A DNA stretch of 64,000 nt, from contig MU004231.1 of NCBI GenBank assembly GCA_010405405.1, positions 427,736-491,735 of the forward strand, in the 5' to 3' direction. The notes beneath the pieces were generated by a model. The model was not told the DNA's origin, searched no databases, and saw only the letters and a program-made list of their open reading frames with translations. Shown in pieces: positions 1 through 41,224 of this stretch (its first letter is position 1; each line of letters begins with the position of its first letter). The stretch comes from Microthyrium microscopicum (taxonomy: Eukaryota; Ascomycota; Dothideomycetes; Microthyriales; Microthyriaceae). The position numbers were made by a program, and so were the translations under genes.

Positions 1-175
1 CTTTCCTTATAAAGCTTAAGGCCCCTATTAAATAAGCTCTAGACCTAGAGTTATAGACTCTTTTTATTATAAAGCTTAAGGCTTCTATTAAATAAGCTCT
101 AAGCCTAGAGTTATAGGCTATTTCTATTATAAAGCTTAAGGACCTTATTAAATAAGCTCTAGAGTATTTTATTAA
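1..175. repeat. 60-bp tandem repeat, 3 copies
   Basis: The word ATAAAGCTTAAGG recurs at about 9, 69 and 129, giving a 60-bp unit in three copies. The window edge cuts the array, so it may extend to the left. Confidence 0.8.
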
Positions 176-3100: not shown

Positions 3101-6100
3101 GTATTAATTAAATAATAAGAAATAGCATAAATAAAATAAAAGTCTAATAGCTATTTTGTATAAAGTAGACTTATAATAAGATTGTGTCTTTTCTCTACTA
3201 TAGTAGTTAAAAGCCTTAATATATTATCTAAGACGCTACGTTATATTCTAAATTCTATATTATATAATCTATTATAAACTTTATAGCCTTTTATGAATAT
3301 AATTCTATTAGGTACTTTATTTATAAGGTACTAGAGATAAGTACCTAAGTATATATAGTCTTTAATATTTTCTAAGTTATTTCTATTAAAGTAAATAAAA
3401 GGTATACTTACCTAGAGGTAAATAAGAATAATATAAAAGGAAAATATAATATACTTAAATATTTTAGATTTAATAACTCTAGTTAATATTATACCTTCTT
3501 AGTAGGAATTAAAGACTCTTCTATTTTTAATAAATAATAATATTTTATAATATAGACTAGGTTACGCTAATTAATCTATAAAGCGTACTAATAGAACTAA
3601 ATAGTAATAATTACTATTTAGTTTTCTATTTAAAGCGCTAACCTTTTCTATTTTAATTTCTAGCCTAAATATAATTAATAGTAATAATTTAGACTTCTAT
3701 TATCTCTAAATTATTATATTAGCTTAGTTTTATAGCTAATTATAATAGTCTAATTGTCTTCTATCTTTACTTACTACGTCTCTTCTTCTTTTATCTTTTA
3801 TTTTACTTATTTTTTTTCTTTTTCTCTCTTCTTCTCTTATTCTTTATTTTTCTTACTTATAATCTTTTCTTTTTCCTTTTTCTTCTTATTTACTACTCTA
3901 AGGTATAGGTAGAGAAGGTAATAGTAATAATATTAATATAATAAATAGTTTTGTAGCTAAGGCTTATCTTATCTTAGTAGACTCTACTCTTCTCTCCTTA
4001 AAGATAATATTTTGATCTTTATATTAACTAATATATGTTTAATATAAAGATATAGTTACTATAGATAGGAAAAGATAAGTAGTAGAAAAGAGGATAAGAA
4101 GCTTTAAAGCTTAATAGTAATTTTAAGTTTAGAATTTTATGTAACTTTTTTAATAGTTAATTAGATTCTTAGATTTTAAGAGTAGTAAAATAATCCCTTT
4201 TATTAAATATATCTATAGCTTAAGATTCTATTTCCTTTAATTACTACTTTTAATTACTATCTCTCTTATAACTTATCTTATTGTTTATTATATATCTTTT
4301 ATAGATAAGTATATTTAGAATGTCTAAAATTATATTAAAGAGCTCTCTAATATAGAGACTAGAACCTTTAAAGTAAGAAAGTATAGATAAAGAAAATTAT
4401 TTAAGCTTTTAAAGCTAATATTATTAATTAACTTTAATATAGTGACTATAGGTTTTATATAATAACTTTTAGTTTCTACTTAGCAAAGAGTATTTTATAT
4501 CTTAAACTCTAGGCCTTCTTAGCCTCTTTAGCTACTACCTTAACCTCGTTTTTAAGTATAGTCTTTTCTAATAAGTTAGTAATTTCTTTTACCTTAGCCT
4601 TCTCTTTTAACTAAGCCTTTTTTATAGCCTTTTTTATAGCCTTCTTTACGTACTTCTTTATCTTTTTTATGTTCTTTAGTTTCTTTACGTTCTTAGCTTT
4701 TAAGTAGAAATATAAGATATAATAAGCTTATTTTTAGTAGAGTAGATAATTACGTAGCTATAGCTCTATATTTATAAAATAATTAGTCTATACTTAATTA
4801 TTTTAGAGGATTATAGTTCTTACTCTTAATTTTATTTATGTCTTAAGTATTACTTTGCTCTTCCTTAGACTTCTTAAAAATTAGCTTAAGGTGCTTTAAG
4901 TAAGTTTAATTAAAGCGTAGTAATACCTATCTAAGTAAATCCTAATAAGAGATATAGAAAGGATAAGTTACTATAACTAGAATAGGTATATATTAAAGTA
5001 TATATCTAAATAAAGCTAATTATAGAGAAGTATAATTATAGTTAACGTATTAGGATTAAACGCTATTTAAATCTAGATACTATATTAGGTTTTTTAAAGT
5101 TTATATATTTATATAAGCCTATTAGGTTTATAGGAGCTTAACTAAGTTTATAGATTATCTTAATATAAGAGATAATATAATATTTATAGTTATTAGTAGT
5201 AAATATAATACTAAGATAGATAAAGATATTAGGCGTAAAGATAAAGTTAAATAAGTAAGCTAAGAATTAAAACTAGTAATAGTTATTATAAGTAAGTCTT
5301 AAATTTAGGTAATAAAGTTACTTAGACTAGTAGTTTATTATTAAGGTTATAAAAGGACGTAGCCTTTCTTATTTAATTAAATAGAACTTAATACCTTAAG
5401 TTTAAGCCTTCTTAACCTTTAGTTCTTTATTCTTATCTTTTTCTATTTCTCTCTCCTTCGTTACCTTTTTCTTAGCCTTTAAATATAGATAAAGTAAATA
5501 ATAGAATTAATCTTAATAAAGAGGGTAGTTATGTAGCTAGATTTTCTCTAATTTATTTAAGCGTATTAATAATGCTAATGTTATAATATAGTATAATTTA
5601 CTAACCTTTTACTAGTAGAGATAATAGATTTACTTATAGAAAAGCTAAAGTTAAAGGACTAAATTACTAATTTTTATTTTTAGGGGAGTTCTAATATTAT
5701 AAATAAATAGGAGGAAGATTAATAAAATACTCTATTAAAACGTTAGCTTAGATTATTAATTACTTAATAGTATAGATAATATAGCTCTATAATTCTCTTT
5801 AAGCTCTTTACCTAAGATCCTAGTAGGAGCTATAGAAATTAATAGTGCTATATTATTTACTTTATAAATTAATATTACTAGGAAGAGGAAATATAAATAG
5901 AATAGCGTTTATAAATAAATATAGCTAGGTTATATCTTATAGATACACGCTAGAAGATATTTAGCTAAATAGATACTTTATAGGCTATAAGGCGTTATTA
6001 TCTATCCTTATTATTCTTCTATCTCTCTCTAAATTCTTTTAGCTACTAGATATATTTATTAGTTTAGTTAAGATATTTAGATTTACTATAAAGGCGTATT

Positions 6101-9100
6101 TTATATATTAATAGTAATAATATTAACTTTAAGTATATTTTCTAATATTCTATATTATTAACAATTTAATAGTAATACTTTAACTCTTACTATAAACTAA
6201 ACTAATTATATATAAAGTTATTTATTAAATTTATTATTTCTAGGCTTTATCTTAATTATAACTAAACTCTCTTTAATATTCTAGTATATATTATTTTTAA
6301 TATTCTTTAGGTATTTCTATATCTCTTCTATAGATAGAGAAGCTAGGGCTTCCTTAGGTTAGAATACTAGTTTAGTTAATTTAGGCTAGGTTAGTCTTAA
6401 TTTAAGATATATTTATAAATCCTTAAGTCTTATTAGTTATATTACTTAACCTTTAGAATAAGCCTTTATAAAACCTATAATATTTAACTAAAGCTTATTA
6501 ATATTTTATAATAGTATATTAATTAGATTATTATCTAAGTATAATACGTTAATTAAGATATACTTTACTATATTACCTACTTAAAGAACTTTTCTAGTAC
6601 CCTAAGTCTAATTGCTTAGTAATATTAAAATAGATATTATAATTAGATGCTTTGCCTATTACTAGTTGTTTCTAGTACTATAGCTACTATACGTTCTAAC
6701 TAGAACCTAAATATTCTTATTAAAAAGGTATTTACTTACTCTTAATAGCGTTTAACTACTTATAGTAAACTTTAGAATATTTTAGAAGAAGTAATAGATA
6801 TTAGCTTTATTACGTAAGGATAAGCTAGTTCTTAAATAGCCTACTTTAATTAGAGATAACTTTTTACTTAACGTGCTAGTTTTACTAAAATAAGGTGCTT
6901 AAAGATTAAATTTCTTAATTATATATTAAAGTACTATTATAATTATACTAGTAGAAGTAGAATACTTTATAATAATTAAGACCTTACCCTATTATAAGCC
7001 TTATTTCTTTTGCTCTCTATTAAGAAAGTACATTTCTAGGTTAGTATAGACTTTTTTAATAATATTTACTACGTACTATATTTAAGCGCTTATCTTTAAA
7101 AACTAAGGGGCTTCTTTAATAAAGAGATTATTCTTAGGCTTAGCTAGTTTCTTAGAGTTAGGCTTTAGAGGTAAGCTATTATTAATTCTTACTAGTACGT
7201 AATAGAGATTATCTTTAGCCTATTCTTTAATTTTCTTTATCTATTTTAATATTAATAGATAGGGCACCTTAATAATAGGTTTATAATATATAATCTTAGT
7301 AGAGGTTTAGTAGACTATATAGTTAGCTAGCTTAGCTTATATTTATTTAGCTTAATGTAGTTTACTTTTACGCTAAGTACTAGAGTTATTAATAATAGTT
7401 ATCCTTAGTTTGTTTATTTACGCTACTATGTATTTATTAAGCTTATTTATAAGCTATATTACTTTTAGGTCTATCGTATTAATAATAATAAGCCTTATTT
7501 TATTTAGAGGTAGTATAATATACTTTTAACTAAAAAGCTTTATATCTATTATATAGTAGAGTTTAAATAAGGTATATATACTAGCTAAAGTGGCGCTTGC
7601 TTAGGCTTATTCTTTTATAAGCTATTTCTCTTCTTTTTTATTAGAATACTTATATAATCTTATATCTTTTATAATAAGTATAGTAATTTAACTAGAAATA
7701 GTATTAAATAATAAAGGAGTAAATAATACATAGTTATTAGTAAAGATTGCCTAATTTTTCTTTAATTTCTATTTAAGAAACTTCCTAATATCTTTATTAG
7801 TATTAGAGAAGTAAATATATTATATATTTACTAAGTAAGTAATTAGGTTTAGTTAGCTTATTATAGTATTATAATATGTCCTAGATTAACCTAATATAGT
7901 AGCTTTAGACTATATACTATAATAGTACTTTAGTAGTATATAACTAGGTATATAGGTTTTTTTATTAATATTAGAATAAGTTAAATTATTTAGTATTTAA
8001 TATCTATAAGACTTATCTAAGACTAAGACTCTAATTATAAAGTATTTTTAATTATATAAGCGTTTATCTTTATTTATTACTAATTCTATATTAGTATAGA
8101 GGTAGTTCTTAGGTTTTAGAGTTTTATAATATTTAGTTTTCTATTTTTCTAACTACGCTTATAAGAGTCTTATAATTAGTTATAAGACCTAGGATATATA
8201 TAAACCTAATATCATTAATATAATAATACTAGTTTACTTAGATATTTTAAAATTAGTTTTAAAATTAGTAAAAAGTTTACATATATAAGAGACTTTATTT
8301 AAGAATATAAACTTAGGTTTTATACTTAAATAGTTAACGTAGAGGGTAAATACCTAGTTAGGCTTACTTTTATATTTTAAGGTATTAATTACTTTTTTCT
8401 ATTTATTTAACTAAACTAAGATTATAGATATAATTATTTATATATAGTTTATACTAATAATAAGAGTATTATACTAGTAGTTATTAGGGTTAATATAAGT
8501 TATAATAGATAGTAACTATACTAGCAATTTCTTAAAGTAATAGTATATTATAGATTAGTTAAGACTCCTTAACTATATATAAAGACCTTTCTCTTTATTC
8601 TTAAGACCTTAATAACTAGAGACCTAAACGTCTAATAAATATCTCTTAAGAAGCTTAGGTTTTTTTTCTTTTATAAGGCGCTACTTCTTTATATATATTA
8701 CTACGCTTTTAATTTATTAATTATTTATTTAAATAGTAACTAGTATTTAAATAGTTTTCTCTAAGCCTAAAACGTTTATAATATAAAAGCTTTACGTAAG
8801 GATAATATACTTATATATAATTATTACTCTAATAGCTTAATAAATTTAAATATTAACTTTAAATCTAAGAATAATAAAGTCTAATATATTACTCTTATTT
8901 TTATAATTAAAGAATATATATATCTTTCTCTAGTCTTTAAGTATTAAGTGCTTATAAGTTTTACTTTATAATAATTTTGCGTAGAAGCTTATAATAAAGG
9001 AAGCTTTTAAATTCTTATCTTTAACTATTCTAAACTCTTTACGTTCTATATATATATTATAAAATAGTTTAGCTTATAAAGCTTTAGTATATAGAGCTTT

Positions 9101-9953
9101 ACCTATTATAGAAGACTTAAGTATAATAAATCTACGTTTAGTATAGTTAAAGTAGTTAATAAAGAAACTAGTTCATTCTTAGATATATTTATTTTTAGAA
9201 GTCTTTAATATATAAAAGTTAATAATATTAGGTATTAGTTTATATATATTAGATAGATAAGGTTTAATTTGTTTCTTATAAGCTTACTATATATTAATTC
9301 TTATATTGCTATTCTTACTATTATAATTATATTATTACTTATCCTTATAAGGTTATAATTCTTAGAGGTATTTTACTTTTATACTACGTAACGTATTTAC
9401 TTTATCTAATAAAGAAGATAGTAAGTTTAGTAACTAAGATTTAGATAGCGTAGTAACTTTTTTTATAGTTAAATTATTTACTTTAGTAGCTATAGAGTTA
9501 TCTAGTATAGTAATATCTTTCTTAGTTAAGTCTTTAGCATTTATAAGAATATTTACTATAAGTAGTAATAATTCTAAGTTATTAGTAGTAAGATTAATAA
9601 CGTCCTTAATGCTAATAAGATTAATAATATACTTAAAGGAACTTAAAGGTTTAGTATAGCTAGAAAAAGATAGCTTATTTTAAGAAGATAACATAGTTAA
9701 AGAAGCTAATATACTTAGAGAACTATAGCGTTTTCTTAAGTAATTAAGAAAGGGTTTAGTTATTATTAAATAACTTAATTTTCGTAAAATAAAGAGTAAT
9801 ATAATATAATCTAGAGTAGTAAAATTGGGTCTTTATAAATAACGTATTTTAGATAGATAATTAATATTTATAGAAATTAGTACTTATACTTTGCTATCTT
9901 CTATCTATATATTACTAATAGAAGGCTTAAGGCTTTAAGGCTATATAAGTTTA

Positions 9954-10670
9954 TTACTATTTAGAAGTAGTACTTAATCTTGTTATACGCTCTCTATCTC
10001 TAACTTAATAATACGTTCTTTAAGTTCTTAAAAAGATATAGTAATAATATTTATAGGTCTAGCGCTATCTAGAAGTAGTACTTAATCTTATTATATACTT
10101 CCTATCTTTAGCTTAATAATACGCTCTTTAAGTTCTTAAAAAGATATAGTAGTAGTATTTATAGGTCTAGCGTTATCTAGAAGTAGTACTTAATCTTATT
10201 ATACGCCCTTTATCTCTAGCTTAATAATATACTCTTTAAGTCCTTAAGAAGATATAGTAGTAGTATTTATAGGTCTAGCGCTATTTAGAAGTAGTACTTA
10301 ATCTTATTATATACTCTCTATCTCTAGCTTAATAATAGGCTCTTTAAGTCTTTAAGAAGATATAGTAGTAGTATTTATAGGTCTAGCGCTATCTAGAAGT
10401 AGTACTTAATCTTATTATATACTCTCTATCTCTAGCTTAATAATAGGCTCTTTAAGTCCTTAAGAAGATATAGTAGTAGTATTTATAGGTCTAGCGCTAT
10501 CTAGAAGTAGTGCTTAATTTTATTATATGCCCTCTATCTCTAGCTTAATAACGCGTTCTTTAAGTCCTTAAAAAGATATAGTAGTAGTATTTATAAGTCT
10601 AGCGCTATCTAGAAATAATGCTTAATTTTATTATATGCCTCTTATCTCTATATTAGTAGTAGTATTCTAG
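9954..10670. repeat. 108-bp tandem repeat, about 6.5 copies
   Basis: The word AGAAGTAGTACTTAAT (with small changes) begins at 9963, 10071, 10179, 10287, 10395, 10503 and 10611, a constant spacing of 108 bp. The period is 36 codons. One minus-strand frame runs through every unit interrupted only by TAA/TAG, so the array probably began as a repeat inside a coding region. Confidence 0.9.
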
Positions 10671-11170
10671 GGCTATAATATTTAGACTAGTAAGCTTAGA
10701 GGAGTATAATATTCTTAGCTACTATTCTTATTAATTGCTTCTAAGATTAGAGTTAATTTTGTCTTTACTTCCTTACGTTTAGACTTGCCTCTATTTTTCC
10801 TACTAAATAAGCTTATTTATACTAAAGTCTATTATTCTTTATAATTATAAAAACTAGATTTATTTTTAAATTTTTTTTTATTTATAGATACTAAAAGATT
10901 ATAGCTACTACTAACTCTTTTTATATCGTCCTTATTATTATAGTACTTTTACTTTATTCTACTAAGCGGTACTAGTAGAAATTCTAAGTCTTCTTCTTTA
11001 GAATTATCTAGATTACTATTTAAATTTATTTTAAAATCCTTAACTAAGCTATTTTTAGAATCCTTATCTAAGCTATCTTTATTATCTTTAATAACCTTAC
11101 TATCTTTATTATCTTTAGTAACCTTATTATCTTTATTATCTTTAGTAACCTTACTATTTTTATTAAATTA
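9954..11170 (-). pseudogene. Relic of a low-complexity, repeat-bearing coding region (unidentified)
   Basis: On the minus strand one frame reads through a Lys/Asp/Asn/Ser-rich stretch (about 11,170 down to 10,960), and the same frame, checked by codon phase, runs through the 108-bp repeats. Interruptions are of the TAA/TAG kind expected from RIP. Composition suggests a charged linker followed by a 36-residue repeat. No family is recognised. Another minus-strand stretch that reads well lies at about 8,240-8,650 but in a different phase, so it may be a separate exon, a shifted part or another gene. Confidence 0.35.
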
Positions 11171-11815
11171 GTTAGGAATAGGATCTTTATACGTATTATA
11201 TTTATATATTAATAGTTTAGTAGTAAAGGTAGGTTAAGTAGTTAGCTAGGGATCTATATAAGATTAAGTATAAGGTTTCTTATTATATTTATTTTAAGGT
11301 AAAGGAGAAGGGCTTAGAGTAGAAGTAACTAAGGCCTTACGCTTTTATTTACTAGTATAAATTTTCTTTAAGAGAGATTTAACCTAGGTAACCTTAAAAG
11401 TAATCTTTCTTAGCCTATAGGGATTATTATAGGCAACTTTAGTAAAATTATATATATCTAAACTTATTAAAATAGTTTAATTATCTTATATTTAACCTAT
11501 ACTATAAATTGTATTTAGACTTTTAGATAGGTTTAACTTTAGGCTTATTATGCCTTTAAAGTACTCTATACTAATCTTAACTATATATTTATAGATATCT
11601 ATATTTATCTTAGATAAGTTAAAAGGGCCTAGTTTATATATATCTTTTAGGTCTAGTATAACTTATTTTTATAAGGAGTTCTTAGTAAATACTAGTATAA
11701 TTATATTAAGGTCTTTACTATCTTAAGTATTAGTTTTCTAAAAGGTAGATAAAGACTATTAAGTTTTATAGTATTTCTTTAAAGTAGGCTTTTTTTTTTT
11801 TAATTATATACGTGT

Positions 11816-11985
11816 AGGAGAGTCTAATAGAGCTAAAGAAGATAGCTAAATAAATCTAGATAGTATATAGCTATTACTAGAGGTATATACGTAAGATTAG
11901 AAAGGGTCTAGTAGAGCTAAAGAAGGTAGCTAAGTAAATCTAGGTAGTATATAACTATTACTAAAGGTATATATATAAGATTAGT
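11816..11985. repeat. 84-bp direct repeat, 2 copies
   Basis: Two adjacent copies carry GTCTARTAGAGCTAAAGAAG at about 11,822 and 11,906, followed by near-identical sequence, a spacing of 84 bp (28 codons). Confidence 0.75.
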
Positions 11986-14900
11986 TATACTATAGTATAT
12001 TATTATAATAACTTCTTAAGGTACCTTAGAAGAAGTTATTATTACCTTTATTAGTATAGCTTAGCGCTATATTCTTACTAGTATTAAATTACTATAAAGT
12101 TTAATATAGGCTATAGCTATTAAAACCTAGCTAAGGTAGAATTATACCTTTAAATCTAAATATTATAAAGTTATACTAAGTTAGGTTATACTATATAAAT
12201 AGTAGAAGTTATATTTTATAATAGCTAGGCTACTATTATAGTTAATAGTAGACATTACTATTTTAAAAGCCTAGTAGTAATATTATATAGCCTTAGTATT
12301 TATATTAGTTAAATAAAGGATAAGACGTAGCTAAACTTAGGCTATTACTTTATAGTTACGATATATTTAGTAATATACTATTAATAGGGTTTAAATAGTA
12401 AGTATGATTTTCTTATAGTCTATTTATAGTTTTATAAAGCTAGTTAGGAAGCTAGAAATAGTATAACTAATATTTTTTAAAAGTAGAATTACTATACGTA
12501 TCTTTATTATTAAATATTATAAACGCTTAGGTTATTTATAGAATAATTAGGATTATATCTAGCTTTAAAGTAAAATAATTATATAGATTATAAGGCTACT
12601 TTTGCTACTTATATTATTCTTAATAAGCTTATTTATTACTAATAAGATATTACGCGTATAAAAGTATAATCTAGTTTAGGGCTTTATAAAAAGGGATATT
12701 AAATACTAATAAGATAATAGCTTAGAAGAATTATAAATTACGTTTAATAACTTTAATATATTTAAGATTATAGTTAATAGTATTAGTAAGCTATCTAATT
12801 ACGCTAAATTAGTTAAGAATATCCTTTTTTATAATAAAGATAATATTAAGGACTATTTTGTTAGTATAATAGCCTAATTCTATATAAAGGTTTATTTTAG
12901 TTACGTTATTCTTAGCTCTAACTATCTACTTAGCCTACTTATAATCTCTCTAATTATACTTAGAGTTTGCTTTATAAATTGTCTTTACTACGTTATTTAT
13001 AGGGTTTAGTATAGATTTATTAATAAAGTTAATAACGCTAGAAGAGGAAGATTTATTAGATATAGTAAATTAGTAGTAGATTAAAAGTAAAAAGTATTTA
13101 GTAAGGATATATTAAAGCTAGTAAGTTAAGTTAGCTAAAATATTTATTTAGTACCTCTAAGTAGTATTATACTATATCTTTAAAGTTAGCTATTATAAAA
13201 TATTATACCTATAGGCTACTACTAGCTAAAAGTAAGGTTTATACTAAAGGAGAGCTAGTTCTAAAGGTCTATATATAAAATACTAAAACTTTCTAAAGTA
13301 AGGGTACTAAGGGAATAGCTTATTTAATGTTATAATTAATTTATAAGGAGGAATTATACCTAGAGGCCTTATTAAAGGAATAGTTAGGTATATAAAAGTC
13401 TTAAGCTATAGAATTAAGAATACTAATTTATATCTTTAACTTAAGGAGAAGAATTTAATACCTATAGAGCTAAACTAAAGCGATTACTAAGTATATAAAA
13501 TACTAATAGCTAAAAAATAGATAAATTAAAAGAACTTATTTAATCTAGTAATTATAGAGGAGTAGTAAGGTAGAGATATAGTAGTAAGAGAGGAAGTATT
13601 AAAGGCTTAGAGAAAGGATATTTTAAAATAGTAAAGTAGAGCTTAGCTAATATAAGCTTAAACTTAAAAGGAAGTCTTAGCTTATATAAGGTTAGCTAAG
13701 TTCTTAACTTAGTAGTTATAATATAAGGTTTAGTAGTAATTATAATAGAATAAGAAACTATAATTAATATTTATATCTATACTTAATATTTAAAAGGAAA
13801 GGAGTAGTCTTTCTTAATTTTAAGAGCTATATAATTATTACGTATAGGCTTTAGTAAGGTTTCTACCTATTTAACTAGAAGATTCTATACTAGAAGAGGA
13901 AATATTTCTATTTTCTTATTACTAAATCTCTCTTATTACTATTCTCTTATTACTATTCTATAATTATTAAATTAAATAAGTTCTTCTAAATCTATCTTAT
14001 ACTTAGTTATTATATATAGAATAGCGTAGCTTTATAATAACTCTATTAGTAGATAAACTTTTAGTTACGTCTTTAGTAGAGAAAATAATTCCTTACTCTA
14101 TTTCTATAACCTCTTTCTTATTACTACCTCTTTCTCTTACTACTTTTTATAATTATAAGAATTAAATAAGTCTTCTTAAATAATTCCTTAAGTTTATCTT
14201 TTTATAAATAGTATAGCTTAGTAACCTAAAGTTTAGGCTAAATAGCTAACTTTTAATAGTTACGCCTTTAGGCTTTAGTATAGTAAGTAAGTTACTACTT
14301 TTATTACTATTATTTATCTTCTTTTCTTAATACTTCTCTTTCCTTAAAGAAAATACTACCTAAATTCTTTATATCTTCTATCTCTTCCTTAGCTCTTACT
14401 CTACTTATTATAAGTATAGCTACTTATAACGCTTTATATACTTAGTAATTAGTATATAATTATAATAGCTAAATCTATAGCTAAAATATAGATAAAAACG
14501 AAATTCTTACTAAGATCTTTAGCTATCTAGCTATTATAATCCTAAAACTTCTTCTTAATTAGCGTAAAACTTATACTTCTTATAAAAATAGTAAGCTAAA
14601 TAATTCTAAAGCTATTAAAATATAAGTTTAAAGAAATTTATTTCCTTATTCTTAGCTAATTACTTATATAGACTAGATTCTATAGCTATCTCTATCTACC
14701 TAGCTAAAGAGGATTCTTTATCTATATTTCTAGACTTAAGTAAATAAAATTCTAAGACTAAGGATAAAGATAAAGTAAAAGTCTAGAATAGTTTAGAAGC
14801 CTCTAAATATACCCTTATACTAACGCCTTAAATAGATCTTAAGAATTCTTAATATACTATTTATAATCTTATAGTAAATTTATCTAATAGTAAGTCCCTA

Positions 14901-16804
14901 ATCTAGTAGATCTATAGCTTATAAGTATATTTAGGTAAGCCTTATTTAGAAGATATACTAAAGAAAGGTCTAAAAGTAGCTCTTAGTAGAGATAATCTAG
15001 TTAATAAAGTAAATTAATACTTAGGTAATAGTATTAATAATAAAGTTAATTAAGATAGTATTACTAATAAGCCTAAATATATATATAGATTAAAAAAGAA
15101 GCATTAATAGGCTATAGTTTCTAATATTAAAGTATAATTCTCTACGATAAAAAATAATAAATAGGTTACCTAGTTTATATTAATCTTAACTATCTATCTA
15201 TATTTTAGAGATAAAAGAAATACTTTTAAAGTTAATAAGAATAAAAATAATATATAGGAAAATATTATAACTCTAATAGTTAAAACTATTTACTTCTTAC
15301 TAGATAATCTAATTATAGAGAAGAAAAAGATAGACTAGATAGTTACTAAGTTTTTTATAGTTATTCTAGAGAAGTAACTTATCTAATTAGCTTATAAGAT
15401 TAATTAAGACGTTAAATACTATAGAAGTATACTAGCTATAGGCTATATAACTATGCTTATTATTAAGATATATCTTAACTTATTAAATAATCCTTTTTAA
15501 GTCTACTCTACTATAACTAGTAATTTAATAGTTAGTAGTAAGGATACTAAATTTAACCTATTTCTCTACTATCTCTAATATACTATTTAGAATTAGTACT
15601 TTATAGTCTTTTAGTTCTTTAGGGTTAATACTAGCCTAGCTATACTTATAGAAAAGAATCTTCCTTAGCTAATCTCTTAAGGCGCGTAAACTAATTTAGA
15701 TATTATTCTTATTAATATTAATTATCTATTTATAAATAGCGTCTTTAGCTTATAGAAGGGTTATATTGCCCTCTTAGATAATTATAATAATCTTATAAAA
15801 GTAAAGAATAATAGAATTATAAGTTTATTATATATAGTCTATTCTTTAGTCCTATATCTATTTATAGCCTAGAGTATAGATCTAGTAGAATAGCTTTATT
15901 AGGCGTATAAGTAGAATAAGGCTCTCTATAATACTATATTACACGCTACTAAAATATTAGGAGATAAAGACTATAAATTCTTAGTAAGCCTTAATTTCTA
16001 TACTATAGTAAATAAATGTAAATATTCCTATTTTTAAGAGGGTAATATTTATATAATCTAACTTAAGCTAGGAGCTAGACTTAAGAGCTCTTAATTTATT
16101 ACTAAAGTTATTAACTAGGATTATAATATTTAAGCTACCTATAACGTGCTTATAATTATATACTATTCTTCTATTATACCTAATAATAGATATACTAATA
16201 ATGCTTAATTTTCTTTATTCTAAATTTCTAAAGAAGTTATTATTCCTTTAGACTATAGCTAATTAATTAAGAATCTACGTAAGGCCTTTCTTAAACTAAA
16301 AAGGCTAGAGATTAAGGTATATATATATAATTTAGATAAGCCTATTATACGTTAAATAAATAGTCTTAACTAGGCATAGTTAAAATAAAAAGAATATAAT
16401 CTAGATTGCTACTTTACTATAGTACTTAGCTTATATCTAGACTCTTTAGAATATTAGCTTTTATTAGAGAAGATTCTTACTATTTATGCTTTATTCTTAC
16501 TTCTTAGAAAGGTAGAGTTTAGTATTATATTAAAGCATACTAAAGAAGTATTAATAGACGCTAACGCGCTAAAAAAGTTAACTATAAAGATTAATAAAGT
16601 ATAAGAAGATACTTTATTAAGTAGCTTATCCTCTAGTAATATTAAGAATAATATATTAAAACCTTTAACTAGTTAGACTAAAGAAACTTTAAAGGAAATA
16701 AGTAGTAGTTCTACTTTATAAAAGCTAATTAATAAGCTACTTAATCTAGATTTGTCTAACTATATAACTAAATCTTAGTTTAAATAGGAATTTAAAGCTA
16801 ATAA

Positions 16805-17210
16805 TAATAATACCTCTTATTCTTCCTTCCTCTTCGTTTAAGATAATGTTAATATAGAATCCTTAAATGCTACTATAGTAGTGCTCCTTTATTCTACTAA
16901 TAATAGTACTTCTTAGCCCCTTTATCTTTCTATCTAAGATAATATTAATATAGAATCCCTAGATACTATTATAGTAGCGCTCCTTTATCTTAATAATAAT
17001 AGCACTTCTTATTTTTCCTCCTTCTTTATCTAAGATAACGTTAATATAGAATCCTTAAATGCTACTATAGTAGTGCTTCTCTATTCTATTAATAATAGTA
17101 CTTCTTATCCTTTCTCTCCCTCTATCTAAGATAATATTAATATAGAATCCTTAGATACTACTATAGTAGCGCCCCTTTATTCTACTAATAATAGTACCTT
17201 CCTCCTTATA
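16805..17210. repeat. 96-bp tandem repeat, 4 copies, in frame in the helicase relic
   Basis: AATATAGAATCC recurs at 16,851, 16,947, 17,043 and 17,139, a period of 96 bp or 32 codons. The units lie in the same codon phase as the downstream helicase motifs, so this was probably a repeated segment of that protein. Confidence 0.85.
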
Positions 17211-17249
17211 GAGTCTTAAGCTTAGAATTAATAGACTAAGCTAGAGGTT

Positions 17250-17362
17250 GCTAAAGCTAATAGTAAATAGGGTTAGTAATTAAAAGTAGCTAATAATAAA
17301 TAGGGTTAGTAATTAAAAGTAGCTAACGACAAATAGGGTTAGTAATTAAATACAGCTAATAA
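17250..17362. repeat. 33-bp tandem repeat, 3 copies
   Basis: AATAGGGTTAGTAATTAAA occurs at 17,266, 17,299 and 17,332, a period of 33 bp or 11 codons, in phase with the helicase relic. It leads directly into an AAT-rich microsatellite. Confidence 0.85.
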
Positions 17363-17494
17363 CGCTAATAATAATAATAATAATAATAATAATACCTACA
17401 AAGATATACCTAAAGATATTTCTAATTCTAATAAATAGTTAGATAATAAGATTATGCCTATAAAAAATACTAATAATACTAATAATAGTAATAC

Positions 17495-17525
<31 letters not shown>

Positions 17526-17560
17526 ACTAATATTAATAATACTAATATTAATAATAATTA
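17363..17560. repeat. AAT/ACT-rich trinucleotide tracts
   Basis: Runs of AAT lie at about 17,368-17,391 and again at about 17,467-17,560 with interspersed ACT and AGT. In the phase of the surrounding relic these read as asparagine runs, typical of a fungal low-complexity linker. Confidence 0.8.
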
Positions 17561-20500
17561 GTACTAGTTGTTAAGCACTTTTGTAGGACTAGGTATAGCT
17601 ACTTTTATATAATTACTAAAGACTAACTTTAGAATTACCTTAGAAGAGATTTAAAATCTTATAAAAAAGGTAGAGTAGATTAGTATTGTAAAAGCTCTTT
17701 ATAAGGATTAAAAAGAGTTTATTAATGTTATTCTCTTAAAAGGTAGTAAGGATAGACTTAATATCTACTATACTAGGCTAGGATGTAGTAAGACTAAAAT
17801 TATAAAAGCTATAATAGCAATATTAATTGCCTTTGTAATGTTCTATTCTAATTTTAAGATAAAGATTTTAGCTATATATACTATAAATATATAATTAGAT
17901 AACCTTATTACTAAGTATATAAATATTTATATAGAAGTTAATCTTATAAACCTTTTGCGATTTTTTACTATCTAAGGATACTTAATTAAGATAGAGAAAT
18001 CTATTGCTTTAAGGAAATTAAAAGAGGTATAAATCTAAGTCTACTAAAATTAAGGTCCTAGTACGTAATAGTAGAATATAAATAATATAGATAACTATAG
18101 TATTAATATTCTAAATACTAAAATAGTATTACTTACTAAATAGTATAGTATTTACTACTTATAGTAACTCTACGTAAATACTAAACGTTAAGACTTTAAA
18201 GGTATTTATAACTATTATATTAAACGTTTTAAATACTTATTTAGGGAATTTATAAGTTAAGCTAGTAAGATAATTAGCGTAATTAACTTAGTAATAGAAA
18301 AGTAAGAATATAATATAGATATAGCTACTAAAGAGTTACTTAATTATGCCTTTAATTTTTAAATTTTTAATAAAAAGTATTATAGTAAGGAGAAGCTCTT
18401 AAAGTTAGAGAGCACTAATTATAGTAAACTACTACTAGATATAGAGTAATATTGTTTATAATTAATAATTACTCTTTTTAGTTTTATAAACTATAACGCC
18501 CTATAAGAGTTTTTCTAGGTAAATTTTATAGGTATTAACTTATAGATTTATAATGAAGTAGTAGTATTATATAGACTATAGATAATAGCTATTATATCTC
18601 TATATAGACCTTAAATAATTATATAGACTAGAGATTTATTCTAGCTTAAACCTATCTATAATCTTAAATATAAAAAAGTTGCGTTTTATAATAGTTCTTA
18701 AGTATTATTAATATATAACGCTATAGTGAATAGCTTTAGCTAAACTATACTAAAACGAGTATTTAGATTTAATTTATCGTATTATAATCTCCTTAATAAT
18801 ATAGGCTACAAAATTCTTAAATATACTAATAATAATAACTCTAAATTTAACTAACTACAATATATTGTGGGCTAGCTCTTCCTATCCTTAGAACGTAGAA
18901 AAGATATACTATTTATAATATTTATAAATATTAGAGATAGTAAAGTTAAAAAGGACGTTACTAGTTTAAGTTCTAATGTTTATAATGTCTATATTATAGC
19001 CTTTATATAGATTAAACTTCTATTATAGATGTAATTAAAAGGTATTAATATTATAATTATTACTCCTTACCTTACGTAAACTAGCCTCTATGCTAAAACT
19101 AAAGGTTAGCTACTTAAATAGATTATTACGTATATTTAAGATAATTATATATATACTTAGTAAGACTATTAAGATATACCTTTATAATTTAGCTAGGTTT
19201 TAATAACTATTTATAATAATAGCTTTAGTACTAAGTATAATTAGAATCTTATTAATCTTGTTTAAAAAGATTATACTAGTTTTTTTATAGAAAACTTATA
19301 AATAAATGCTATAGTATCTTAAGGCCGCTTATCCTTATTCTTTAGTAACTTAAAGCTTTATAGTACTATGATAGCTCCTAGTGCTAAGAGATAGGAGGAG
19401 TTTAAATAATCTATACTTAGTAGATTACTAAAGTATTTTATTAATAATAGCTATATGTAGTATATACTATTTACTAATAATTACTCTTATTAGAATTTAG
19501 AGAAACTTAATATTCCTAACTTTAATAGAGTAGTTTCTTATTATAAGAAAGAGCTAAATATATATAAGGAGATTAAAACTATTATACTTAAAGAACTAAA
19601 GGTAATTAGAGATCTTATAGAACTAACCTTACTTTATAGTTTTAAACCTAAGGATAAAGAATTTAAAGCTAATAAAGTTAATAAAGAAGGTAAAGTTAGT
19701 AAAGATTAGTAGTAAGGAATAGTAATAAGGAAAAGAATAGTAAGAAGGTTTAAGTTTAAAGTAAGATTTATTTAGCTAATTAATTAACTAACTTAGATAG
19801 TATAATAGTTAGTACTAAATAGAAAAAGGGTTTAGGATAAAAAGATTATATAGATAAGAAAATTTAATAAAAAAGAATATATAAGGAGGTTAGATTAAAA
19901 AGATAGATAGAATAGTACTATTACTAGAAAAGTTAACTTATTAAGTTAGTAATTAATAATATAAAGTTATGTAACGTATCTCTAGCGTAATATTATAATT
20001 TATTAGTTATATAAGATTAGCTAGTATCCTTACTTAGTCTTAGTACTAGCTATCTAGAATATTTAGAAATGTCTAATACGTTTAGAAATATTTAGTAAGT
20101 AAAGGTATATTATATATATAATAAAATATTATTAGGTAATATTCCTAAGAGTTAACTTTGCTACTTAAGCTTTAGAATACTAAGTAAAATTAAACGCTAG
20201 TTATTACTAGTATAAATTTAATGCTAAATTTACTACTTATATACTAAGGATATACTTATATCTTTAAAAGTTAATAAGGACAAAATAGGTATAGAAGTTA
20301 ATATACTAGCGTAATCCTTTTAGTATTACGTATAATAATAGAGAAAGATAATTAGATATAGATATATCTAACTTATACGTTTTAATCTTTTAATATATAT
20401 TTAACCTAAATAAGTTATATTACTATTCTTATAGACTAATCTTCTTAAATGTAGGTATATTAAGTCTTTTAAATAATATATAGTTTCTCTTTATTGTAAA

Positions 20501-20929
20501 TTCTTATAATTGCCTCTAAAGGCCCTTTAATTAAGTATAAAGATTAATATTAGTAATAGAAACTCTAGTAAGAAAACCTTCTATAAATAGTTCCTCTACT
20601 AGTATAAGATTTACTACTTATTCTAGTTATAACTATACTATGTCTAAAACGCCTATAATAGAAGATAAGATAATTGCGTCTTTTACTATATCTTTATCTT
20701 TAGCTACCCTTAAAGCTATAGAAAGAGTTATTACTCTAATATAGCATAAATGTAGTTTATAAGATAGAATAGATAAGGCTAATAAGTCTTAAAAGTCTAA
20801 GAGTAGTATATAATATATAGTTAATAAAGTTATTATATATTTATAATAAAATTTAAGATATCTAGTAGGTATGCCTATATTAGCCTATAGAACTAATAAA
20901 AGCTATAACTAGATTAATAAGTATAAGCT

Positions 20930-23900
20930 ACTACCTTAAGATACTATTAAGATAGAGTACTAATATTATTATTTAGGAAGAGAAAAGCTCTATAGAGGAG
21001 TAAAGCTATAGAGTTAACTAGAGAAAGAACTAGAGTTTACTAGTTAGGTAGTTTCTAGTAGTGTGTTAAAGAATAAGGTAAACGAGTTATTCTAGGGAAT
21101 AGCCTTTAGGAGTAAAATATATAACTTACTTAGTTAGAAAGTAAAGGATTATAAATTATTAATAGAAAATATTAATAACCTTAAAGGCTTTATACCTAGC
21201 TAATAGGAAGTAATACTTAAGGAACTACTATATAATAAGATAAAAGGCATTAAAAATCTTCTAGGTAGTAAAGTTAAGGTATACTTTTAGAGTATCTTAG
21301 AGATTATTAAATTCTTTATCTCCTATAAGCCTTTTATTAAAGACTTCTACTTTAAGCTTATAATATAAAAGGATAAAGATAGTAAGTATATCTATATTAA
21401 TACTTAATTAGTAGAAAGATAGTAGGAATTATAAAATAAGGTTAATTTAGGTATTATACTTATTCTTATCTACTAAGGGTTAAATAAAACTATAATATCT
21501 AAATAATATAGTAATAACTATATATAGGCTTACTATATAATTATTTTTAATTTATTAGGAAGTATTAGAAGAGCTATGAAAAGACTAGGATTTCTTCTTA
21601 TTATAGTACTCTCTAGGCTAAAAGGTATAGACGTTAATAGTAAACTTAAGATATTTTATAACGCTATAGATATTATGTTTAAAGGTTTAATACTACGCGT
21701 TTAAGTATTATAGAGCTATTTGCTAATAAAATATAGAACTTAGAATAGTTTTTAAGAGTAGTTACGTTATAGTAACTACTAATAGCTAGTTTTAAAGGTA
21801 TCTTCTAATTCTTATTTACGTAAGTATAAATTATAAAGAGCTTATTATAATTATAGATATCTAGTCTAAATATTACTATCCTATTTGCTTAGTGCTATAA
21901 CTATATTAGTAAGACCTTACTAGTAAATAGGCCTATTAGACTTATATAACTTTATAAAAGAATATATTAAAGTAAGAAGTACTTTGCTACGCTAATTAGA
22001 AAAGAGAGTATACTAAGTAGCTTATTACTACTAATAATACTAAAGATAAAGACTATATTTATAAAATTTATAATTTTGCTTAGAATTATTCTTTATTAAA
22101 TATTTACGTAGTAATTACTTTTAATCTACTATATATATTCTTTTTAAATAAACTAGTTAAGTAAGTAATAGATTAGACGGCCTAAATTATTTTAGAAAAG
22201 AGAGTACTAGTAATATCTATAGTACTAGTAGCTAAAATAAAGAATAATAGAGCTATATAGAAGACCTATGCCTATAAGATGCTAAAGATTAAGAGAAAGG
22301 ATAGTAATATATTAAAGACTAAGTAGAAGAGGAAAAAGAAGAAGTTTATATTTAGCGTAAAAGTAAAGTTTATAATTAATTGTAGGTTTCTATAGTATTC
22401 TATTTATCTAGGCTTTCTAAGGATAGCCTAAGGCTACTATAACGTTTAATAAAAGACTAGCCTAGAATTATAAGTACTTTTAAAGTAACTTATAGCTACC
22501 TTAGCTCTACTCTTAATTCTAAAGGACCTAATTATAATAAAATTTATTAAAGCTTTAATAGATGTTATTATATTTTCTAGCTATAAGTTATATAATAAGA
22601 ATATACTTAAATATATATAAGTCTATTTATAAATTATAGAATATACTAAAATAGTAATATATAAGTATAAGACTCCTTAAGCTAGGTTTAAAGGGCTTAA
22701 TTTCCTTAAGTTTTATAACTTAATCTATCTTGTACTATCTATTTATATATTTAGCACTATAGATAGAACTAGTTCTAGCATTGTAGAAAAGTTATATTAG
22801 GAGTATACTATACTAGTAGCAAAATAGACTAACTTTTAACCTAGTTAGTACGTTTAGATAATCTACTATTTTACTAATTATATTAAGAATATAATCTAGA
22901 ATAATAATAATAACTATAACTATTAAGTCTATAATGTTACTAAGAAGAAGATTATGTTTAAAGGAACTTATTCTATAATTATTCTATTAAGTATGTCTAA
23001 ATATAGTTTATAACTCTAATTATATTATATAGATAAGCTATATAATAAAAGTATTTATAAATCTAGTATACTTCTTACTAGGGACGTTAGTAAATAGGCT
23101 AAGCTTAATAACCTTAAGGGTTATTTATATAGCTAGTTAATTAATTGCTATAAAGAAGACCTTAAGAAGTACTAGTCTTTTCTAAAGCTAATACTATTAT
23201 ATATATAGAGTAAAGAAATATACTTAAATAAAGATCTTATTAATGATAGACTAGACTTTATATACTCTAGTAAAGTATTATATTCTAATACTCTCTAGCT
23301 AAGTTACCTTATTATAATACTATATAGTAGTATAACTTATATAATAGATAATAATAAGAATGATATATAACCCTTTATAGCTTACTATAAATAAGAATAG
23401 CAAAAAGATAAGGATAATAATTAATAGTATAATGAAGTCTTAACTAAGAATTATTAGTAACGCGACTTTATATAAGCTTAGACCTATCCTATATTTAAGA
23501 AAGAGCTTAATAATAATTTTAGTCTTTTAGGTTAACTTTTTATATAACTACTTATTATTTATATAGTATATAATATAGATTAAATAATAAGAGATTTTAA
23601 ATTATAATATAGATATACTAGATTTTTTATAGCTTTAATTTAAGAGTATATACTAATCTTAGAAAAAGCTATAAAACTTACGTTTAATAAGCTATTAGGT
23701 CTTATATTATTTAAGCTAGCTATAAAGTTAAAAGTATATAAACTAAATAAACTATTAACTATTATATATATAGTTCCTTATAAAGACTTAAAGTATCTTA
23801 ATTACTATTAGTTAAATCTATACCTTAATTATAATAATTATACTAGAATATATAACCTAATTACCTTTAGTAAATAAAGAATTAAGGTAGCTAAGGCTAA

Positions 23901-24160
23901 AACTATAGTAAGACGTAAGGCCCTAAAGAGAAAGAATAAAGAGCTCTATAAAGCTTAGGTTAAAGTTTATCTTAAGAAGCTTACTAATAGAGTAAAGAAA
24001 ATAAAGCGTAGTAATAAAAAAGAAATAGAAAATAGAGAGGATAAACTAAATAGTAATAAAAAGAGTAAGTAAAAGATTAGCAAAGATAGTAAAGAAGAGA
24101 TTAGTAATAATAGTAAAGAAGATAGTAATAATAATAGCGAAGATATATAGTAAAATAAAG
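20930..24160 (+). pseudogene. Relic of a large + strand coding region, unidentified
   Basis: From about 20.93 to 22.2 kb one + strand phase (codon start divisible by three), and from about 22.4 to 24.15 kb the next phase, read as protein-like sequence interrupted mainly by TAA/TAG. The second part ends in a Lys/Asn/Glu/Ser-rich tail (about 23,880-24,150). The phase change near 22.3 kb may be an intron, a shift or a junction between two genes. No domain is recognised. It lies downstream of the helicase relic on the same strand, so the two could belong to one element, but nothing proves it. Confidence 0.35.
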
Positions 24161-27054
24161 GTCTAATAAACGTTTTATTATCTAAGAGTTATATATTTTA
24201 TAGACTACTAAGTATTATTATTATTATTATAATATTATCTTCTAAGTAATTTAGTTTTATTAGTATTAGTTATAGACTTAAATATAATAGTTAGTATAAT
24301 ATAGAATATAATAGAATAAATTAACTTAGGAACTTTAGGAATATATATTTATATAGAATAGTATATATATAAGAGGTAAAATTATCTATTCTTTTTAATA
24401 GCTTTTAATTTATAATTCTTTAAATAAAATAATAGGCTATTAATTTTAAATTCTTTTTCTTTAGTACTTATAGTAATCTAAACTTATTTTACTTCTTTAC
24501 CTTACTTCTAATATATATATCTTCTCTATACTTTATTTTAAGCTTTTATAAAGAGCTTATCTAGTTACTAAACCTAAACGTTACCTAATAATTATCTACT
24601 ACTTATAGTAATAATTAAAAGGGTAGCTATTTACCTTTATTATATATCTTTATTGTCTTAGTTTCTAATAACCTTCTTTATTTATAATAACTTGCTTAGT
24701 TAATTAATAGCTTTACTACTACTTATTATAATACTATTATATCTTTTATTTAATTCTATTATAAACTATATACTATAGTTTTTAAGATAACTAAAAACTA
24801 TACTTAACTCTTCTAGTACCTTTATTTAAAGTACGCTCCTATTTAAAAAATATAAATTATAAATACCTAGAATCCTAGACTATTCCTTAACTCCTTAAAG
24901 CTATTATACTAGTTAAATTAACCTCTAAGCTAGAAGAAAATAATAATAATGCTCTAAACTTAGATATAGAATCTCTCTTAGAAACTAATTAAACTAAACT
25001 TAAGTATAAAGTCTACTTAGACTCCTATATTACCTATTAGCAAAACCTTAGTTCTACTAAATAGACTACTAACTAACTTATAAATACTATATTACTAGAC
25101 TCTCTTTAGTAAGATATAGTCTTAGAAGTAGATAAGTAAGTTATTACTATATAAGTATATAAAAACTAGATCTTTAAGTAAGGCCTTAGCGTCTTTTTAA
25201 AAGTGGTTAGGCTATTAGTGTTAGTACTAATAATAGAGGAAGAGATATAGGCATAGTATTTTAATATGTATTAAGATATTTATAGGGCGCTAAATTTATA
25301 GCTATCTATATAATATATACTATATTATAGTTTAGTTAGAGTATAGTAGAAATTTTCTCTTCTTAGCTATAAATAGTAAAGCTTATAATAAAAAGATAGT
25401 TATTATATAAAGATATAAGGTATCTCTTTTTAAATAGATAGGAAGAAAGGATAAGATATAAATATAGATAATATACTATTTAAGAAAAGTAAAAATAAAA
25501 GTTTAATATAGGCCTAATAGAATTTGTAGTCCTATTAGAATATCTTTAATTTCTTTATTTTTAAGTAAGTAGGACTTTATAGTTAGAGCTTTTAGATTTA
25601 TTCTTTACGTCTTAATAAATATAAAGCTAGGTTTCTTTTAGTATAGTGTATTCTAGACGTTAGTACCTAATCTTTTTAAGTCGTTATAGATAAGTATATT
25701 AATATTAGTTAATTAACTCTTATCTTATTTCTTCTATACATTAAACTTACTTTACTAGTACTACTTATTATCTTCTAGCTAGCTCTTAATTAATAATTAT
25801 ATTAGCTTTAGTAACTAATTAATTCTTATCTTACTATAGATAGTAATACTTCTTCTATTTAATACTATAAATATAGTAGAACTAATTAACTATATTTATA
25901 ATTAATTTTCTAGTATATTAGTATAAGATAGAAACTTAAAAAGCATAGCTTACTATATATAGTAGCAGCTAGTATCTAGTTTAATTATTAATTTATAAGC
26001 GTTATAATGCTATTAATTTATCTTTATAGCTAGTATAAGTATAGCTTATAAAGCCTTATCTTTAAGATAATTACTATACTTTATTAGTTTAGAATTATAA
26101 TATTTTAATATGTGTTAAAAAGATAGTATCTATTATTTAGAGTATTCCTAAAATAAGATATAGAAGCTATTAATAAGGATAAGAGACTTTAAAGGTTTAA
26201 GTATCTTTTTATATTATATTATTAAAAAGATATAATAACTAAGCACCTTACTTAGTATATTTAGCTTTCTTATACTAAATATATATCTAATAGAAGCATT
26301 TATTATACGTTATAACGTTAAGACTTAAAACTATAAGTAGAGTAAGGAATTTTTTATAGCCTAATTTATTATAATAAAGCTAGTTCTTAGTAGTAAACTT
26401 AATAGCTACTAACTAGAAAGCGTTTAATTCTTTAAGTAATAGAATTAGCGTAATAAGCTTAATTATAACTTTTTATTAATAGCAACGTAGAGGGAAGTAG
26501 TTTTTATCTTTAATAGCTAATAAGAAGAGCTTTTTTAGAAGATTTAGAAATTATTATTCTTTAGTAGCTTAATAATAATATTGTAAAAGCTTTTAGTAGT
26601 TAAATAGAAAGAAATATTAGATAGTACTATTAATAGGTTTAGGGCTAAATATCTTTAAAGTCGTAACTAAACTAAAACTTACTAGAATATTACTATTATT
26701 AAACTAAACTTAACTCTTACGTATTCTATCTTCTACTAATATTCTTAATACGTTTCCTATACTCTACTATACTTCTTTTTACTTATACTTATAGCTATTA
26801 TATTTTATATTATATTTAGGTACCTATTACTATTATTTAAATTAAATAAGTAGCTATTTATAGTAGCTATAATATATAATAAACCTATAACTAAAATTAA
26901 GCTAAACTATATACTAAAGTAGAAGGTTATTAAGATTTTTAGACTTATTAATACCTTATTTAATATACTCTAGCTTATATTTATTAATACTATATTAGAG
27001 CGCTAAAGCGCTAGAGCTAGATCCTTTTCCTAATTCTTTTAATTTCTTACTACT

Positions 27055-27455
27055 AGGGTATAGGCTCCTTTCTATCTTTAAATAAGTTTAAGTAATAACT
27101 TATAGAACTTAAGGTAGTATTATATTAATAATAAAATAGTATTAATATAATATTATTTCTTAGAGAGTTAACGTATAGCTACTATAAAGGTAGAATAGCC
27201 TTAGGGTAGTGCTATAGAAGAGTAATTATAGCGCTAATACTAAGGTAAACGTTACTATATTACCTTAATAGTATTCTTATAAGTATTATACTATAAGTAT
27301 ATACTAATTATATAATAATAATAATAATAATACGTAGTAGTATACTATTAGGGTATAGATTTCTTCTTTTCTATAAATAAGTTTAAGTAATAACTTATAA
27401 TACTTAAGGTAGCATTATATTAATAACAAAATAGTATTAATATAATATTTTCCTT
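27055..27455. repeat. Pair of about 100-bp direct repeats
   Basis: Two copies of a segment running from AAATAAGTTTAAGTAATAAC to TAGTATTAATATAATATT lie at about 27,055-27,152 and 27,350-27,455, roughly 300 bp apart and highly similar. Between them is unrelated AT-rich sequence with a short TAA microsatellite near 27,305. They may be termini or a local duplication; no element is identified. Confidence 0.6.
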
Positions 27456-29099: not shown

Positions 29100-29705
29100 A
29101 GTATACTACTCTACTTCTACTACTATAGAAGTTGCCTCTATAGCTACTACTTTAGCCTTTCTATATCTTTACTTTAACTATTATAGAACTTATCTTTATT
29201 ATTACTACCTTCTTCTCTATTATTATCTTAACTACTATAGAATTTGCCTCTACTATATATTTTATATATCTTAAGGCCTTTAATATTTTAGTTAGCTTTA
29301 TAAGTAAAGTAGTAGGGTTATATTAAAGTTTAGAAGTAGTAAGAAAAAAGGAGATAAAGATAAAAGATATAGCTAAGCTATTATTAGAGCTACTAAGTAG
29401 ATACTAAAGGAAGCGTAATTAATAATAATAATAACTACTACTTCCTTTTCTATTAAACCTACTTCTATATTAACTACTATAGAATTTGCTTCTATAGCTA
29501 CTACTTCTTTCTTTATTAAACCTACTTCTACTTTAATCGCTATAGAATTTACCTCTATAACTACTACCTTTTTCTTTATTAAATTTATCTCTACCTTAAT
29601 TGCTATAAAATTTGCCTTTATAGCTATTATCTCCTTCTTTATTAAACTTACCTTTATCTTAACTATTATAGAATTTGCCTTTATAGCTACTATGATTACT
29701 ATAGT
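29100..29705. repeat. 63-bp tandem repeat, about 4 regular copies plus degenerate ones
   Basis: TATAGAATTTGC-like words occur at 29,478, 29,541, 29,604 and 29,667, a regular 63-bp spacing (21 codons). Less regular relatives lie at about 29,120-29,250. On the minus strand a single phase reads through the regular units, suggesting a former 21-residue repeat. Confidence 0.75.
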
Positions 29706-35975: not shown

Positions 35976-36018
35976 TATCTAGATATATCTAGATATATCT
36001 AGATATATCTAGATATAT
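35976..36018. repeat. 10-bp tandem repeat (AGATATATCT), 4 copies
   Basis: Four perfect copies of AGATATATCT in tandem at the end of the module array. Each unit is its own reverse complement. Confidence 0.9.
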
Positions 36019-38885: not shown

Positions 38886-38889
38886 TTAA

Positions 38890-41200: not shown

Positions 41201-41224
41201 TTTACTACTTCTAATAGCTTTATA

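What the first reader, a model, noticed from the sequence alone, without database searches (positions are those of the whole stretch)
14690..19900. Five-kilobase helicase relic that kept its frame
A UPF1-like SF1 helicase relic on the + strand keeps one codon phase from about 14.7 to 19.9 kb, with degenerate P-loop (17,781), ITPY (19,059-19,070) and motif-VI-like (19,305-19,328) signals all in phase. Damage is of the RIP type with no detectable indels, so the gene was probably inactivated quickly and recently relative to indel decay. Large helicases of this sort carried in repeats are poorly described.
Basis: partly seen in the sequence, partly recalled or inferred. Interest (0 to 1): 0.7.

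Follow-up and report, generated by a model that had tools for sequence, protein, structure and literature searches.

The report
Helicase-like relic inside giant dead transposon
The broken gene is one part of a roughly 43-kb mobile DNA element that copied itself around a fungal genome and was then destroyed by the fungus's point-mutation defence; it probably encoded a distant helicase, next to the element's own transposase.

Summary
The frame is real. On the + strand, 14,691-19,899 (phase pos%3=0) has 135 stops, TAA or TAG only, in 1,736 codons; the other + frames have 213 and 343. It is not a lone gene. It lies in a giant repeat (X) that runs from left of the window to about 36,610, roughly 43 kb; nine loci hold the helicase-like part. 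In 29,137 aligned columns, 6,923 vary by transitions only and 61 otherwise.

In the same phase, 1.3 kb downstream, is a Plavaka transposase (PF18759): 8 of 8 copies tested, best E 6e-10. X is therefore a RIP-killed giant Plavaka-class DNA transposon.

The helicase label is only partly supported. Pfam finds no AAA_11/AAA_12 in nine copies, yet 3 of 3 real UPF1-type helicases RIP-damaged in silico are still found. A RIP-aware ordered-motif test places SF1 motifs exactly here (53.5; 1 of 1,160 decoys as high), but other forms of the test were weaker. Most likely it was a divergent SF1 helicase. Giant Plavaka repeats are known from Amoebidium; my searches found none described in ascomycetes.

The parts
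1..36610 (.). Giant repeat X (the left end lies outside the window; about 43 kb in all)
   Evidence: Eight other copies align almost gap-free at about 90% over the 19 to 30 kb that could be compared; right part. Right end from the empty site and from 5 right ends with different flanks.
6081..11891 (+). Low-stop frame, unknown large protein (strand not certain)
   Evidence: Copy D: 144 stops in 1,937 codons in this frame, other + frames 322 and 194, best minus frame 148. No Pfam match.
14026..19899 (+). Helicase-like frame (the finding), probably starting near 14.0 kb
   Evidence: Low-stop segment in copy D; 146 stops of 1,958 codons against 167-328 in the other five frames; window frame statistics.
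17697..17744 (+). Q-motif-like
   Evidence: RIP-aware chain, score 7.8.
17757..17825 (+). Motif I (P-loop)
   Evidence: Score 9.6; GKTKT read directly in copy D.
17862..17918 (+). Motif Ia
   Evidence: Score 9.5.
18609..18659 (+). Motif III (GDxxQL-like)
   Evidence: Score 13.1. Motif II, just before it, scores at the floor (-3).
19044..19091 (+). Motif IV (ITPYxxQ)
   Evidence: Score 14.8.
19197..19364 (+). Motifs V and VI, weak
   Evidence: Scores -0.1 and 1.7.
20287..24544 (+). Plavaka transposase gene, probably two exons (20.3-22.0 and 22.0-24.5 kb); the second part is inferred from frame only
   Evidence: Low-stop frames in copy D: 42 stops of 568 and 57 of 849 codons.
21255..21692 (+). 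Plavaka transposase domain (PF18759)
   Evidence: 8 of 8 copies tested; best E 6.3e-10, 39.2 bits, cut-off 26.3; seen again.
27749..30724 (+). Low-stop frame, unknown protein with 63-base in-frame repeats
   Evidence: 64 stops in 992 codons in copy D, other five frames 105-152; tandem array.
36105..36545 (.). Subterminal tandem repeat, 110 bp x 4
36600..36610 (+). Right terminus of X, TTTYAYRATRT; least mutated form TTTCACGATGT in copy D
   Evidence: 5 of the 6 right-end stretches examined, with five different flanks; the sixth could not be read to its end.

Best explanation
The frame is the remains of a gene of about 1,950 codons carried by a giant (about 43 kb) Plavaka-class DNA transposon. 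The element's DDE transposase, encoded just downstream in the same direction, would have cut and pasted the whole unit by its ends (inferred from the family). The helicase-like protein was probably a divergent SF1 helicase that assisted replication or repair of so long an element, or its expression (inferred). A recent burst left at least nine near-identical copies; RIP then recognised them as duplicates and turned C:G pairs to T:A, breaking every long frame read here with almost no length change (damage shown; burst and RIP as cause inferred from its pattern).
For: Multi-copy unit: nine loci, colinear over 19-30 kb at about 90%. Plavaka domain in 8 of 8 copies tested (the ninth, on C13, was not available there); no other family at E<=1 in the three + frames of the two outer 10-kb pieces of copy D. 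Same right end in 5 of 6 stretches read, with different flanks, and an empty site in repeat Y. RIP: 6,923 transition-only columns against 61 others of 29,137. Helicase: ordered SF1 motifs at 17,697-19,364 are the best chain of six frames of 36.6 kb, 53.5 against decoys 31.3 +/- 4.0, 1 of 1,160 as high, 0 of 1,160 in the same frame. With my first, stricter spacing: 44.3, 2 of 440 as high; in 7 of 9 copies the top chain is here.
Against: No AAA_11/AAA_12 in 9 of 9 copies, although three simulated controls are found. A full-length RIP-aware profile gave no signal here. Averaged over all copies the chain was still the best of six frames but scored 34.1, while 25 column-permuted decoys had mean 27.6 and maximum 35.6. 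In 2 of 9 copies a chain at about 8.0 kb scored higher. hhalign against own-genome helicases: probability 0.1, E 0.63. PDB searches found no helicase. The AlphaFold model is uninformative (pLDDT 27.3). The relic's 53.5 lies below all four leave-one-out simulated true members (means 72-139, lowest single value 65.5). Motifs II, V and VI are not supported. The left end, terminal inverted repeats and target duplication could not be seen.
Confidence: 0.62

Rival explanations
1. The frame is a real protein gene of the Plavaka element, but not a helicase: a large repeat-rich protein of unknown function, in which the motifs are chance matches.
For: No profile match in 9 copies while simulated RIP'd helicases match; motifs II, V and VI weak; the all-copies mean is within decoy range; Asn-rich and tandem-repeat stretches.
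Against: 1 of 1,160 permuted decoys reaches the score; Q, I, Ia, III and IV in order in one phase, also in copy D at 47.4.
Confidence: 0.27
2. X is not one transposon: a Plavaka element sits inside a larger repeat, or beside other elements, and the helicase-like gene belongs to the other part.
For: 43 kb is large for a DNA transposon (general knowledge); the left end was not visible; several copies could be read only in part.
Against: Shared right end in 5 of 6 stretches; helicase-like and transposase frames in the same direction 1.3 kb apart in the 8 copies where both could be read; colinearity over 19-30 kb.
Confidence: 0.2
3. An ordinary host UPF1/NFX1-type helicase gene captured or duplicated and then RIP'd.
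For: Motif order and ITPYxxQ resemble UPF1-type proteins.
Against: 3 of 3 simulated RIP'd cellular helicases keep AAA_12 at E 2.7e-7 to 1.2e-18; the relic has none. 0 of the 16 AAA_12 matches reported in the genome lie in X or its copies, and the relic finds only its own nine copies.
Confidence: 0.06
4. X is a Starship (tyrosine-recombinase giant element).
For: Size and several large genes.
Against: The DUF3435 search of the genome gives only 2 sub-threshold matches, neither in X; a Plavaka transposase is present. But the genome search does not see RIP'd relics well: it also missed Plavaka.
Confidence: 0.03

Closest known systems
Plavaka DNA transposons (CMCT/EnSpm-like group; PMC12730594, passages seen)
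   Same: PF18759 transposase domain; right end ..CGATG(T) is close to the ..TGATG-3' reported for PlavakaB.
   Different: The Plavaka families in the passages are from Agaricomycotina and some carry TET/JBP; X lies in a genome with heavy RIP-type damage and showed no TET/JBP match in the frames scanned. The paper's single 'helicase' is about Helitrons. Element sizes were not given in the passages. Target duplication untested here.
Plavaka giant repeats of Amoebidium (PMC11244446, section 7 read)
   Different: There tandem clusters of genes, many for tyrosine recombinases; 'helicase' does not occur in that paper's main text. The host is a protist related to animals.
UPF1-like SF1 helicases (AAA_11/AAA_12)
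   Same: Order of Q, I, Ia, III and IV motifs and ITPYxxQ.
   Different: No profile match; motifs II, V and VI not supported.
Starships (recalled, and listed)
   Same: Giant multi-gene element in a probable filamentous ascomycete.
   Different: No DUF3435 seen in X; a Plavaka transposase instead.

Membership tests
Plavaka transposon | Plavaka transposase domain PF18759 | tested here: met
   8 of 8 copies tested, E 0.015 to 6.3e-10; two over the cut-off (39.2 and 32.7 bits against 26.3), window itself 15.0.
Plavaka transposon | Terminus ..TGATG-3' (PlavakaB) or ..ACA-3' (PlavakaA) | tested here: inconclusive
   Five right ends read TTTYAYRATRT; the least mutated is ..CGATGT. Left end not visible.
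Plavaka transposon | 2-3 bp target duplication and inverted ends | not testable with these tools
   Left end not available; the empty site was compared at the right border only.
Plavaka transposon | Catalytic D..D..E with C(2)C and H(3-4)H | not tested
   RIP turns many Cys and His codons to Tyr, so the relic cannot show them reliably (inference).
UPF1-like helicase (AAA_11/AAA_12) | Pfam PF13086/PF13087 match | tested here: not met
   0 of 9 copies; 3 of 3 simulated controls positive.
UPF1-like helicase (AAA_11/AAA_12) | Ordered SF1 motifs in one frame | tested here: inconclusive
   53.5, 1 of 1,160 decoys as high, but II, V and VI weak and the all-copies mean within decoy range.
RIP relic | C:G to T:A transitions, CpA above all, in repeats whose copies are otherwise alike | tested here: met
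   C before A is at 0.06 of the genic level.
Starship | DUF3435 captain | tested here: inconclusive
   None in X, but this kind of search misses RIP'd relics and the left end was not seen.

The most novel reading that the evidence does not exclude
Filamentous ascomycetes hosted a lineage of giant Plavaka-class transposons, over 40 kb, that carry their own large SF1 helicase beside the transposase: a DDE element with a built-in replication or repair helper, which could explain how so long a DNA transposon multiplies to nine near-identical copies.
Probability: 0.35. Interest if true: 0.7.

Novelty: new variant of a known kind. Interest (0 to 1): 0.5.

Why it matters
Starships are the best-known giant elements of these fungi. 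A second kind, moved by a Plavaka transposase and hidden because RIP erased its genes, would mean that AT-rich blocks hold unrecognised giant elements. The copies also show a 40-kb unit damaged along its length with almost no length change, and give a worked example of how far profile searches still work on RIP'd genes.

Tried and rejected
Tried without result: Pfam on the stop-masked frame and its copies (one search gave only UBX7_N at E 0.08 in 14,691-17,600, only DUF6739 at E 3.7 in one copy's downstream frame, both taken as chance); NCBIfam; phmmer or profile searches of the PDB (nothing; only a ribosomal protein L23 and a phage tailspike, E 0.02 to 0.25, taken as chance); hhalign against own-genome helicases (E 0.63, though it pairs Q, I and Ia in register); a full-length RIP-aware profile (17.8 against 200 codon shuffles with mean 15.9 and maximum 23.2); AlphaFold on nine stop-masked copies (pLDDT 27.3); genome-wide searches for DUF3435 and Plavaka (the latter missed relics that direct scans find, so such negatives are weak); Rfam and tRNA scans of the window (nothing).

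The motif test was run in three forms: all copies averaged (34.1, decoy maximum 35.6 of 25), single copies with the same spacings (window 44.3, 2 of 440 decoys as high), and with spacings widened because the reference proteins themselves have a shorter Q-to-I distance (53.5, 1 of 1,160). The widening came after the first results and should be weighed so. The copy-D line is out of frame and is not used; one search repeats it in frame. Reference motifs come from four proteins of this genome; decoys are column permutations of them. The low-stop segments were picked for having few stops, so the counts are partly circular. The RIP simulation takes damage rates from base-pair frequencies and leaves C before T untouched; its products have GC 0.17-0.22, so at least as low as the window's 0.22.

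Considered and rejected: lone helicase gene; ordinary UPF1 homologue; Starship.
Full report
Setting. GC is 18-31% per kb from 1 to 50 kb and 43-54% beyond. RIP indices are extreme in the first part: TA/AT 1.62-1.71 and (CA+TG)/(AC+GT) 0.08-0.14, against 0.77 and 1.25 in 50-64 kb. This points to a filamentous ascomycete with strong RIP (inference).

The frame. In phase pos%3=0, 14,691-19,899 has 135 stops in 1,736 codons; the other + frames have 213 and 343, the minus frames 149, 296 and 152. All 135 are TAA or TAG. The minus strand is thus not excluded by stop counts alone. The least damaged copy (D on C7, GC 0.240; CA+TG 19.7 per kb against 7.5 in the window) has 146 stops of 1,958 codons in the matching + frame over 14,026-19,899, against 167-328 in the other five. 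The gene probably starts near 14.0 kb.

The repeat. A 601-base probe finds 9 places in the genome, the window's own included. The stop-masked protein of 17,601-19,899 finds the same nine, each with 56-67 stops, and no undamaged relative. Pieces around the eight others (named A-H in my scripts) align to the window almost without gaps at about 90% over 19 to 30 kb; several are partly unreadable. Over four stretches between 565 and 30,400 (29,137 columns; the array at 10.0-10.7 kb left out) 6,923 columns vary by C/T or A/G only, 36 by a transversion and 25 by more than two bases. So the copies were nearly identical when RIP struck. The right end is at about window 36,610. Of six right-end stretches examined, five (window, C12, C4, C5, C7) share TTTYAYRATRT and then have five different flanks; the sixth (C11) could not be read to its end. 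To the right is another RIP'd repeat, Y. Two uninterrupted stretches of Y elsewhere show the empty site. From the Y match left of the window, X is about 43 kb, if nothing else lies in the part that could not be seen. One search, which scores only the best candidates, shows further places with X's right part on C4 (1.70 Mb), C6, C11 and C16.

The transposase. Pfam on ten stop-masked frames of the window gave one lead, Plavaka at E 0.022. The same stretch in the window and 7 copies (the ninth copy, on C13, was not available there) matched Plavaka in 8 of 8: E 0.015, 3e-5, 2.4e-4, 2.2e-3, 6e-6, 6.3e-10, 6.1e-8 and 8.1e-5; two exceed the cut-off of 26.3 bits. All three + frames of copy D over window about 21.0-31.0 kb gave Plavaka only at E<=1, and over about 1.1-11.1 kb nothing. 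The domain lies at about 21,255-21,692, in the same phase as the helicase-like frame, 1.3 kb downstream. Another low-stop frame (21,998-24,544) probably holds the rest of the gene after an intron (inference from frame only).

Is it a helicase? Standard tests say no: no AAA_11/AAA_12 in nine copies or in short pieces, nothing in NCBIfam, no helicase in the PDB. To know what that is worth I damaged three undamaged helicases of this genome in silico at the window's context rates. All three kept AAA_12, at 67.8, 65.8 and 30.8 bits, about a third of the 213, 169 and 102 bits listed for the genome's matches at those loci. So the relic's original AAA_12 score was probably below about 40 bits (rough estimate): not an ordinary family member. 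A test made for such damage scores each codon by the chance that RIP produced it from a motif's residues and chains eight motifs in order. Its best chain in six frames of 36.6 kb is exactly here: Q 7.8, I 9.6, Ia 9.5, II -3 (floor), III 13.1, IV 14.8, V -0.1, VI 1.7; total 53.5, next best frame 35.3. Column-permuted decoys average 31.3 (sd 4.0); 1 of 1,160 is as high, none in the same frame. Copy D gives 47.4 at the same place. Results against: with the first, stricter spacing the score was 44.3 (2 of 440 decoys as high) and 2 of 9 copies had a better chain elsewhere; the mean over copies, 34.1, was the best of six frames but did not exceed the best of 25 decoys, 35.6; a full-length RIP-aware profile showed nothing here; leave-one-out simulated members score 72 to 139 on average. 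I conclude: probably a divergent SF1 helicase, about 0.7.

Function. Shown: a multi-copy unit with a fixed right end, a Plavaka transposase, several long damaged frames, and RIP-type damage. Inferred: cut-and-paste transposition by the transposase; help by the helicase in copying or repairing a long element; silencing by RIP after a burst.

Comparison. PMC12730594 (passages seen) places Plavaka in an EnSpm-like group, with 2 or 3 bp target duplications and PlavakaB ends CATCA..TGATG; X ends in ..CGATGT. 'Helicase' occurs once there, about Helitrons. PMC11244446 (section 7 read) reports Plavaka giant repeats up to 50 kb in Amoebidium, so giant Plavaka-linked repeats are not new as such. My library searches (listings, apart from these two papers) showed no report of a helicase-bearing or giant Plavaka element in an ascomycete. 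Listings were capped, and most subscription papers are not held.

Noticed in passing
window 47,093-47,956, minus strand: A second RIP'd relic, in repeat Y: DUF6589 (PF20231), E 1.5e-9, 37.5 bits over the cut-off of 27. No paper in the library holds the word DUF6589.
   Followed up: partly
window 36,611-49,900 and L033:1-3198: Repeat Y, an older repeat split by the insertion of X; uninterrupted stretches on C2 (1.95 Mb) and C14 show the empty site.
   Followed up: partly
window 9,957-10,650: 108-bp tandem array, 6.4 copies, matched in all eight other copies of X.
   Followed up: no
window 29,431-29,692: 63-bp (21-codon) array inside the low-stop frame at 27.7-30.7 kb.
   Followed up: no
G000 C5:1573164-1574292: An AAA_12 match elsewhere in the genome with 6 stops inside, perhaps another pseudogene or a gene with introns.
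   Followed up: no
window about 50,000: Sharp border between 24% and 43% GC.
   Followed up: no
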